Source: Planctomycetota bacterium (GTDB taxonomy: Bacteria; Planctomycetota; Phycisphaerae; WQYP01). From it: DNA of 9,734 bases. How positions within the stretch are numbered: position 1 is the stretch's first letter; each line of letters opens with the position of its first letter. Below the pieces are notes generated by a model. That model made no database searches. It was not told where the DNA came from and saw only the letters and a program-made list of their open reading frames with translations. Positions 6,299 through 8,098 of the stretch are shown one piece after another. Where the stretch lies: assembly GCA_021799715.1 (NCBI GenBank), contig JAJYZY010000085.1:1-9734 (forward strand), given 5' to 3'. Made by a program: the position numbers and the translations under genes.

Positions 6299-6736
6299 AT
6301 GGTTTGGCAAGACTTCAAGCAAAAAGTTTTCCGATTTGCGATCTTAAAGCATGTCCGCGAAACCGATATCCACTGGGATTTACTGCTGCAATTGCCTGAT
6401 CGCCCGCTGCTGGCAACCTGGCAAATTCGCCTTGATCCAGTCCGGTGGGAACATGAAAATGGCCCAATTCCGGCACTTGAACTGCCTGATCACCGCCTGG
6501 TGTATCTCGATTTTCAGGGCGACATCTCCGGCGGACGCGGACATGTGTCGCATATTGACGGCGGCAAAATAGAAATTGCTCGCGGGGAAAAAAATATCAT
6601 CACATGCTTTCTCCGCGGCCAATTGCTGCATGGCTCAACGTCCTTGAAGCGTATGATGGTCGAAGGGGAAACGTCCTCGCGGCAGTGGGAGTTAACGTTT
6701 AATGCCAGTCCGGGATGTCTACCGGTGGAAGGTTAA
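6299..6736 (+). CDS. Stand-alone LigD-type 3'-phosphoesterase domain protein
   Basis: This 145-aa protein matches the LigD_N (DNA polymerase LigD phosphoesterase) domain, which in LigD trims 3'-phosphate and 3'-ribonucleotide ends during bacterial non-homologous end joining. Visible landmarks are FAILKH (His18), IHWDLLLQ (His25 and Asp27), a TWQI strand (40-43), LPDHRLVYLDFQGDISGGRGHV (62-83, His65), all in the family order HxxxxxxHxD then H. The position of Arg52 of Pseudomonas LigD, just after the H-x-D, seems to be Leu here, as in the divergent single-domain versions. No ligase or polymerase domain and no ku gene are present in the window. ATG 6299 is the only in-frame start before the conserved core. 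It is divergent from the TPR lipoprotein operon. Confidence 0.8.
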   Translation: MVWQDFKQKVFRFAILKHVRETDIHWDLLLQLPDRPLLATWQIRLDPVRWEHENGPIPALELPDHRLVYLDFQGDISGGRGHVSHIDGGKIEIARGEKNIITCFLRGQLLHGSTSLKRMMVEGETSSRQWELTFNASPGCLPVEG

Positions 6737-6859: not shown

Positions 6860-7081
6860 CAACCGTTATCCCGCCGCATCCGATCATTGGGGAGCATTAG
6901 CTTGATGCGGAAGCGTCAAGTTGGATGCGAAATGGTGTATGGATTTCTGCTTCAACCCCCTTCGGCGCGACTGCCACCGATTGCCACGGTTGAAATTGAA
7001 TTTCAGCCATTACCCGCAGTCCCGCAAACAACCATAATGCTCCCGCATTAGGCTATTGTTGGTACGCATCGTTAAACGACC
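6860..7081. repeat. Direct repeat copy A of a paired intergenic element
   Basis: This segment is repeated at 7125-7349, 43 nt downstream. The core 6890-7081 aligns without gaps to 7158-7349 (offset 268) with 11 mismatches in 192 nt by hand count, seven of them C/T. The preceding 30 nt (from CAACCG to CATTG) is also repeated but with more changes and a few single- or two-base indels. Sequences before 6860 and in the spacer show no similarity. The core begins with GGGAGCATTA and contains its exact reverse complement at 7035-7044, but similarity continues 37 nt beyond that, so the inverted repeat does not mark the element's end. No target-site duplication was seen. Confidence 0.9.
6890..7044 (+). 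ncRNA. Candidate structured RNA, copy A
   Basis: A + strand fold can be drawn by hand. P1 pairs 6890-6899 with 7035-7044 (10 bp). P2 is 6901-6920, eight pairs closed by a GGAA tetraloop of GNRA type. P3 is 6921-6955, twelve pairs with two single-base bulges and a 9-nt loop. P4 is a weak 3-bp hairpin (GGC 6964-6966 with GCC 6973-6975). P5 is 6988-7008, eight pairs with a 5-nt loop. P2 and P3 abut directly and sit one nt from P1. Several pairs are G-U on the + strand (6906-6915, 6924-6952, 6990-7006) and would be A-C mismatches on the other strand, so the + strand is the likely transcript. No promoter or known RNA family was recognised. Confidence 0.4.
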
Positions 7082-7124
7082 ATGATGGCACAGATCCCGG
7101 TGATCCATGTAGCGTGGAATAAAT

Positions 7125-7349
7125 CAACCGTGCCATCCGCCGCATCCAATTATTGATGGGAGCATTAGCTTGATGCGGAAGCGTCAAGTTGGATGCGAAA
7201 TGGCGTATGGATTTCCGCTTCAACCCCGTTCGGCACGACCGCCACCGATTGCCACGGTTGAAATTGAATTTCAGCCATCACCCGCCGCACCGCAAACAAC
7301 CATAATGCTCCTGCATTAGGCTACTGTTGGTACGCATCGTTAAACGACC
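7125..7349. repeat. Direct repeat copy B of a paired intergenic element
   Basis: This is the second copy of the element at 6860-7081. It carries the same inverted repeat (7158-7167 with 7303-7312), although the outermost pair is now G-T. Like copy A it ends at GTTAAACGACC, after which the two flanks differ. The 43-nt spacer between copies (7082-7124) holds no gene and no obvious promoter. The nearest downstream gene starts at 7538, 188 nt away. Confidence 0.9.
7158..7312 (+). ncRNA. Candidate structured RNA, copy B
   Basis: The same fold as in copy A is kept: P1 7158-7167 with 7303-7312, P2 7169-7188, P3 7189-7223, P4 7232-7243, P5 7256-7276. Relative to copy A, changes fall in the P3 loop (7204), P3 bulge (7216), P4 loop (7235, 7240) and single-stranded stretches (7228, 7279, 7286, 7288, 7289); the one change in a helix (7312) turns the terminal G-C of P1 into G-U. 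P2 and P5 are unchanged. Function, promoter and ends are unknown. Confidence 0.4.
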
Positions 7350-7537: not shown

Positions 7538-8098
7538 ATGCAGATATTCCGAACCAGCCGACTTTCAGCCACCGCCGGTGCCGGCGATTTTGTTGATCAG
7601 GTGGAACCGATTCTGCGTCAGGCGGTGGAACCGGTCTCGTCCGCGGCCATGGCGGTGTGGGATGTGCGGCAACTCACTGATGGGCGTAACTTGTATCATT
7701 TGTGCCTGCACGACGCGTGGTCGCATATTCACCAGCATTTTTCCGCGGAGGAAATCGCGCCGGACATGCCGCTGCCGAGGCTGGTATGGGAAAAACTGGC
7801 CCTGTTCCTCAGCTGCGCCCGGCGCGTGCGTTTTTCCATACACGAGGGAACCTTCGCAACCGAAGCATTGGCGAATTTGCGCCTGGCGTTGAACCAGATT
7901 CCCGGCATCGGCCACAAGGGCCTGAAAATCCAGAACCAGTGTGAGATTATTCCCTGCAATGCGTTTGTACCGGCCACCGCCATGCGCCTGACCGAATTCT
8001 CCCTGGAAGTTGATGCCTCCGTCGCGGATCTGGTAGCCCATGCCCTGCGGGACTGCGGCTTCCAGGTGCAAAGCCGCACGGTGATTCGCAACGGCTGA
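7538..8098 (+). CDS. Conserved-looking protein of unknown function
   Basis: This 186-aa protein is not recognised. It has no signal peptide or membrane segment and is probably cytoplasmic. The first part (about 1-75) is helical in character (DFVDQVEPILRQAVEPVSSAAMAVWDV, then HDAWSHIHQHFSAEEIAPDMPLP). The C-terminal part (about 110-186) alternates helix and strand (ATEALANLRLALNQI, then RLTEFSLEVDASVADLVAHA, CGFQVQSRTVI) and would fit a small alpha/beta fold. Four Cys residues are scattered, with no zinc motif. I chose ATG 7538 because GGAG lies six nt upstream; ATG 7487 is in frame but overlaps the candidate -10. The TPR gene follows after 103 nt on the same strand. Confidence 0.6.
   Translation: MQIFRTSRLSATAGAGDFVDQVEPILRQAVEPVSSAAMAVWDVRQLTDGRNLYHLCLHDAWSHIHQHFSAEEIAPDMPLPRLVWEKLALFLSCARRVRFSIHEGTFATEALANLRLALNQIPGIGHKGLKIQNQCEIIPCNAFVPATAMRLTEFSLEVDASVADLVAHALRDCGFQVQSRTVIRNG

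What the first reader, a model, noticed from the sequence alone, without database searches (positions are those of the whole stretch)
6860..7349. Paired 0.22-kb direct repeat in a gene-free gap
Two copies of an unrecognised element lie 43 nt apart in an 800-nt region with no convincing gene. Core identity (181 of 192 by hand) is much higher than in the 30-nt 5' flank, which has indels, so the core may be under constraint. It resembles no insertion sequence, tRNA or CRISPR unit I know.
Basis: seen in the sequence. Interest (0 to 1): 0.72.

Follow-up and report, generated by a model that had tools for sequence, protein, structure and literature searches.

The report
Paired hairpin repeats (REPIN family)
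The two near-identical stretches are a tandem pair of small hairpin-ended repeats, scattered in tens of copies through several related planctomycete genomes and probably copied around by a single-strand DNA transposase; the kind is known, but I found no description of this family.

Summary
The repeat is real: 6890-7081 and 7158-7349 match at 181 of 192 positions. Each copy is a 160-bp REPIN: two different REP hairpins in inverted orientation, TAG-type foot outward, around a 111-nt spacer. End A has an 8-bp stem and GGAA loop; end B has a stem with one bulged base. No Rfam, plasmid, phage, protein-family or exact DNA match explains it. A neighbouring gene led to seven related MAGs. Five carry 34-81 exact REP units each, on both strands, against 0 for the reversed pattern; in a class sample 8 of 198 genomes match, six in high copy. 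Arms pair better with their own partner than with swapped partners. In G003 a HUH/tyrosine transposase gene lies between two REP arrays; its closest relatives, in G001 and G046, have a REP 168 and 153 nt away. I read this as a REPIN family with a RAYT-like transposase, a new member of a known kind; the transposase lacks the RAYT Y..NP motif. Mobility is inferred. The window's own genome is not held.

The parts
6897..7056 (.). REPIN copy 1 (160 bp), ends A and B with feet outward
   Evidence: matches dispersed copies in relatives over query 35-196 = window 6894-7055
6897..6920 (+). REP end A of copy 1: foot TTAG, arm CTTGATGC, loop GGAA, arm GCGTCAAG
   Evidence: DNA fold of 6897-6930 -6.4 kcal/mol, z -3.0 (the last foot base adds a G-T pair there)
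7032..7056 (-). REP end B of copy 1: foot ATAG, arm CCTAATGC, loop GGGA, arm GCATTA(T)GG with one bulged base
   Evidence: DNA fold of 7025-7056 -5.1 kcal/mol, z -3.1
6921..7031 (.). spacer of copy 1 (111 nt), 102 of 111 identical to the spacer of copy 2
7057..7164 (.). linker between the two REPINs (108 nt); about 25 nt at each end repeat with the flanks of the other copy, the middle is unique
7165..7324 (.). REPIN copy 2 (160 bp), 149 of 160 identical to copy 1
7165..7188 (+). REP end A of copy 2, identical to that of copy 1
7189..7299 (.). spacer of copy 2 (111 nt)
7300..7324 (-). REP end B of copy 2: foot GTAG, loop AGGA, same bulge
   Evidence: DNA fold of 7293-7324 -5.1 kcal/mol, z -2.8

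Best explanation
The finding is a tandem array of two REPINs (BIME-like), members of a dispersed REP family of one uncultured Planctomycetota lineage. Each REPIN has two non-identical REP hairpins in inverted orientation with a (T/G/A)TAG foot on the outside. Most likely mechanism: when the strand is single-stranded (lagging-strand template, repair), each REP folds; a REP-associated Y1 HUH transposase binds hairpin and foot, nicks near the foot with its tyrosine and moves or copies the REPIN to other intergenic sites. The local pair arose afterwards by tandem duplication of a REPIN with part of its flank. Shown: repeat anatomy, dispersal in relatives, arm covariation, and a Y1 transposase gene next to REPs in three genomes. 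Inferred: binding, cleavage, copying, the tandem duplication, and that the window's own host has such a gene.
For: Dispersed: BLAST of copy 1 finds copies in 5 of 7 related MAGs, two over almost the whole REPIN at 72-74%. REP pattern: 34, 59, 81, 39 and 80 units in G001-G005, 0 in G006 and G007, reversed-pattern control 0 in all seven. Class sample 8 of 198, six with 32-81 units and two with one. Anatomy: 102 units found in the window and fetched loci by the 5' arm and the first two loop letters; 98 pair at 8 of 8 positions and 4 at 7 of 8; over 43 distinct units 340 of 344 pairs against mean 308.4, maximum 318, in 2000 partner swaps. 33 feet-outward pairs (the window's two included; the script looked at 100-260 bp), 32 of them 149-171 bp, each with one A-type and one B-type end (29 of 33 by the script's strict rule, the other four by my reading of the arms). 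Window REPs fold as predicted. Transposase link: G003:C116 Y1 gene (PF01797, 25.5 bits, cut-off 23) with REPs 21-225 nt on one side and 189-393 nt on the other; G001:C16 homologue (76% over 33 aa, contig ends inside the gene) with a REP 168 nt away; G046:C58 homologue (48%) 153 nt from that genome's only pattern match. Presence differs between relatives in the same gene neighbourhood.
Against: No transposition was observed and no precise empty site could be shown. The window's own genome is not held. Of the 25 family matches to the transposase I examined 12; only 3 of these have a REP nearby, and the other nine, at 34-38% identity, have no full-pattern REP in the stretch read (L093 has one divergent unit about 3.5 kb from the gene). 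G002, G004, G005 and G146 carry many REPs, but no match closer than 34% was found in these fragmentary MAGs. G007 has Y1 genes and no REP of this pattern, and G003 has six further PF01797 matches besides the REP-flanked one. The G046 homologue is below the Pfam cut-off (18.4 against 23) and has H-A-H as its HUH motif. In G003 only 8 feet-outward pairs come from the 81 strict units, so many units are single or have a divergent partner. The subfamily profile finds no related solved structure.
Confidence: 0.87

Rival explanations
1. A structured RNA element (terminator, mRNA-stabilising or regulatory hairpin) kept for its RNA function rather than a mobile repeat.
For: Arms covary and G-T pairs are tolerated; the long + strand fold is a little better than shuffles, z -1.7 and -2.0, the - strand -0.6 and -0.4; it lies between two co-directional genes.
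Against: No Rfam match at gathering score and only weak unrelated ones below it. 32-81 units per genome in six relatives on many contigs, and differences in presence in the same gene neighbourhood. The spacer looks poorly conserved between copies (by eye, alignment). REPs can also act in RNA, so this is not exclusive.
Confidence: 0.06
2. A duplicated small gene: the 51-aa minus-strand frame 6897-7052, open in both copies.
For: 8 of the 11 differences fall in one codon phase (binomial p 0.009 for a given phase, about 0.026 for any phase) and 6 of 10 changed codons are silent; the + frame of the same phase has 7 of 10 silent but internal stops.
Against: No family match, only the window's own copy-2 peptide in the protein search; over 33 REPINs no single frame is the long open one throughout; the frame runs through both REP arms.
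Confidence: 0.02
3. A MITE of an IS200/IS605-type insertion sequence rather than a REPIN.
For: Both kinds use Y1 transposases and end hairpins; the G003 transposase scores with the IS200 model (7.9e-05, 22.9 bits, cut-off 55) and not with the REP_Tyr model at E 0.01.
Against: A gene of this subfamily is found once in G003 and is flanked by arrays of whole REPINs, the REPtron layout, not by one left and one right end. The two ends are inverted relatives with a TAG foot.
Confidence: 0.05

Closest known systems
REPINs / BIMEs of Pseudomonas and E. coli (Bertels and Rainey 2011, PMC3116915, search listing only; Di Nocera 2013, PMC3733652, outline, passages, sections 5 and 14)
   Same: Short hairpins with a TAG-type foot, in inverted pairs with the foot outside, dispersed between genes, also in tandem clusters, pairs in many families made of two different REP types.
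   Different: Other host lineage and sequence; foot mostly TTAG/GTAG; spacer 111 nt in the window, a little longer than the 20-100 bp given for most dimers in PMC3733652.
GTAG REP families reported from Planctomycetes, with Rhodopirellula baltica named (PMC3733652, passages and section 5)
   Same: Same phylum, same foot superfamily, tyrosine transposase genes with flanking repeats.
   Different: The paper's consensus sequences are in a figure that I could not see, so sequences were not compared; the pattern used here is found in only 8 of 198 genomes sampled from the relatives' class.
TnpA-REP (RAYT) and class 3 Y1 proteins (Quentin 2018, PMC6006769, passages and sections 12 and 27)
   Same: HUH plus a single Tyr, gene flanked by high-copy hairpins; class 3 is found mainly in Planctomycetes, Acidobacteria and Proteobacteria.
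   Different: The class 2 rows that I saw (2.5-2.8) have YI..NP; here the conserved Tyr lies in YLPxQ in the three REP-linked proteins. Class 3 has a CnGA foot and YV..EQ; here the foot is TAG-type.

Membership tests
REP sequence (GTAG superfamily) | 20-40 nt palindrome with a short loop | tested here: met
REP sequence (GTAG superfamily) | GTAG (or degenerate) tetranucleotide at the foot | tested here: met
   By reading the units printed: TTAG or GTAG in most, ATAG or CTAG in some; window feet TTAG, ATAG, TTAG, GTAG. The pattern itself fixed TAG, and the first base is looser than in the type families
REP sequence (GTAG superfamily) | Many dispersed, mostly extragenic copies in one genome | tested here: met
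   32-81 units in six relatives; 5 of 33 REPINs lie inside a stop-to-stop frame of 150 aa or more, 28 do not. Not testable in the window's own genome
REPIN | Two inverted REPs, foot outward, nearly constant spacing, moving as one unit | tested here: inconclusive
   Pairing and spacing met: 32 of 33 pairs 149-171 bp, 8 of 8 in G003 at 134-153 between pattern starts. Movement as a unit not observed
REPtron / RAYT | Y1 HUH transposase gene flanked by the cognate REPs, not itself multicopy | tested here: met
   G003 on both sides, one gene of this subfamily there; G001 (cut by contig end) and G046 with one pattern match each. Not linked in nine further examined homologues; not testable for the window's host
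REPtron / RAYT | YI..NP tyrosine motif and RAYT model score | tested here: not met
   Motif is YLPxQ; NF047646 not reached by the G003 protein at E 0.01
REPtron / RAYT | Cleavage of single-stranded REP DNA near the foot | not testable with these tools
   Shown for E. coli, S. maltophilia and Marinomonas enzymes (PMC8266576, passages)

The most novel reading that the evidence does not exclude
The REP-linked transposases here (HUH, Tyr in YLPxQ, no Y..NP) form an undescribed Y1 group that works on TAG-footed REPINs built from one perfect and one bulged hairpin, a link between IS200-type transposases and classical RAYTs in which each end may be handled differently.
Probability: 0.3. Interest if true: 0.5.

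Novelty: new member of a known kind. Interest (0 to 1): 0.33.

Why it matters
It extends REPINs and their domesticated transposases to an uncultured planctomycete lineage, with A/B heterodimers of nearly constant length and a transposase type that does not fit the tyrosine motifs I saw in print. That gives a clean comparison for how REP recognition (perfect stem against bulged stem) and REP spread evolve.

Tried and rejected
Small protein gene in the repeat: rejected. Rfam RNA: none at gathering score; three sub-threshold matches at E 0.049, 1.2 and 8.7. Plasmid DNA: no match; phage DNA: five matches of 22-32 nt at E 0.5, taken as chance. Exact 21-mer from end A: 0 in genome contigs, 0 in viral contigs; the relatives found later differ in the arms. 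Integron attC site: considered from recall only, not tested, dropped after the array, dispersal and transposase evidence. Precise empty site downstream of the TPR gene: L001 lacks the REPIN array that L002 and L004 have, but the intergenic stretch differs as a whole, so no clean empty site. A hairpin scan around homologues was set too strictly and returned nothing in 12 loci, even where a REP is known; it is not used. The 136-of-136 pairing is circular for the A type (selected as fully paired) and is not used; one search is the less circular version, though most loci were fetched because of REP or BLAST matches. Solved-structure search: three weak matches at E 0.12-0.92 to unrelated molecules. 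Structure prediction of the transposase was not attempted, because its locus is not of a kind the tool's description accepts. The phylum-wide pattern search was not run.

Full report
Observation. The pair is as described: 192 nt, 181 identical, spacing 268. Similarity with indels reaches to about 6873 and 7139, so the gap is about 57 nt by this alignment. The 801-nt region has no defensible gene.

Surroundings. The window holds ordinary chromosomal genes: an FGGY kinase, an IPP transferase (MiaA), an RNA methyltransferase, a second methyltransferase, TPR proteins, a LigD N-terminal-type protein at 6299-6736, and an uncharacterised protein at 7538-8098. The LigD-type protein has 32 database homologues; the two with an organism in their source name are both Phycisphaerae bacterium. 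The 7538 protein has 17, its own included, none with an organism named. Searching genome contigs with an alignment of those 17 gave seven loci, all Planctomycetota or Phycisphaerales MAGs; in five of them (L001-L005) the downstream TPR gene is kept, in L003 up to the contig end.

Dispersed family. BLAST of copy 1 against the seven MAGs gave matches in 5 of 7, 13-28 each at E up to 1, concentrated on two parts of the query, about 37-75 and 170-196; two matches cover most of the element at 72-74% identity. Outside query 35-196 there is little cross-genome similarity, which puts the element at about 6894-7055.

Anatomy. Reading these copies shows two hairpins in inverted orientation. End A: TAG, CT[CT][AG]A[CT]GC, GGNA, complementary arm. 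End B: TAG, CC[CT][AG]A[CT]GC, loop, complementary arm with one extra pyrimidine. In the window and fetched loci 102 units were found by the 5' arm and first two loop letters; 98 pair at all 8 positions, 4 at 7. Across 43 distinct units 340 of 344 pairs form, against mean 308.4 (sd 3.4, maximum 318) when partners are swapped 2000 times. Thirty-three feet-outward pairs were found between 100 and 260 bp; 32 are 149-171 bp and one is 257. By the script's strict rule 29 of 33 combine A with B; the other four do so by the first two arm letters (my reading). In G003, whose 81 strict units are all listed, neighbours closer than 400 nt are 8 feet-outward (134-153), 10 feet-inward (44-141) and 8 same-direction (146-206). 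The four window hairpins fold as single-stranded DNA with z -2.8 to -3.1. The whole element folded as RNA is only slightly better than shuffles.

Range. The pattern TAGCYYRAYGCGGNAGCRTYR occurs 34, 59, 81, 39 and 80 times in G001-G005 and not in G006 or G007; the reversed pattern occurs in none. In 198 genomes drawn from the class of G003, 8 match: those five, G146 with 32, and G046 and G124 with one each. All eight are among the 28 genomes searched as the family of G003. At this stringency the family is lineage-restricted within what was searched.

Transposase. PF01797 is found in 6 of 7 MAGs, G007 included, which has no REP of this pattern. Of the seven matches in G003 one, G003:C116 (L058:2416-2931, minus strand), lies between two A-B-A arrays, with REPs 21, 176 and 225 nt away on one side and 189, 238 and 393 on the other. 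The protein has H-L-H and a Tyr in YLPAQ. Its search in the family gave 25 matches in 16 of 28 genomes at E up to 0.001. The two closest by identity also sit by REPs: the C-terminal end in G001:C16 (76% over 33 aa; I read the reported stop as the natural one; the contig ends inside the gene; REP 168 nt away) and G046:C58 (48%; REP 153 nt away, the only pattern match in that genome, with further TAG-footed hairpins on both sides by eye; HUH motif H-A-H; Pfam score below cut-off). Nine other examined members at 34-38% have no full-pattern REP in the stretch read; the remaining 13 matches were not examined. By my estimate, with 81 units in 4.7 Mb, about 0.02 REPs are expected within 400 nt of a given gene.

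Gain and loss. L002 has three and L004 two REPINs just after the TPR gene; L005 has one unit there by pattern, close to the contig end; L001 has none, and the window shows none in the 186 nt held after that gene. By pattern none of L001-L005 has a unit before the 7538 homologue in the stretch held. This fits mobility or loss, though no exact empty site was seen.

Mechanism. From the work on E. coli, S. maltophilia and Marinomonas TnpA-REP (PMC8266576, passages), these enzymes bind folded single-stranded REPs, use the foot for recognition or site choice and cut at CT, in one case also at CA. The foot here keeps the last two letters, AG, proposed to choose CT. I infer the same for this family. 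The tandem pair in the window is best read as a local duplication of REPIN plus part of its flank, as in arrays of relatives where the linker is repeated as well.

Literature. Searches for REPIN, RAYT, Planctomycetes (at least two terms, 63 papers, 20 listed), repetitive extragenic palindromic with Phycisphaerae (0 papers) and RAYT, REPIN, transposase family, spacer, group 3 (at least three terms, 15 papers, 12 listed) showed no description of this family in the listings; GTAG REPs in Planctomycetes are known in general (PMC3733652). Most subscription papers are not in that library.

Noticed in passing
window 7083-7138: The unique middle of the linker is bounded by an inverted repeat (GATGGCAC ... 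GTGCCATC, by eye), possibly another small hairpin.
   Followed up: no
window 6897-7056 and 7165-7324: 8 of the 11 differences between the copies fall in one codon phase; chance about 0.026, unexplained by the REPIN reading.
   Followed up: partly
window 7538-8098: Uncharacterised protein with no Pfam family and no NCBIfam match above cut-off, kept next to a TPR gene in five of the seven MAG loci; 17 database proteins, its own included.
   Followed up: partly
window 6299-6736: Stand-alone LigD N-terminal phosphoesterase-like protein, just below the Pfam cut-off (31.0 bits against 31.1).
   Followed up: no
L065 3-587 (contig of the same length as that of L001): A second type of Y1 protein (RAYT-like, with NNNP motif) stands upstream of the 7538 homologue in L001, on the side where the window has its REPINs; no REP found in the locus.
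   Followed up: partly
L059, L060, L061, L109: A related group of the transposase (34-35% to the G003 one) in G001, G004, G005 and G146 without REPs nearby; possibly a domesticated relative.
   Followed up: partly
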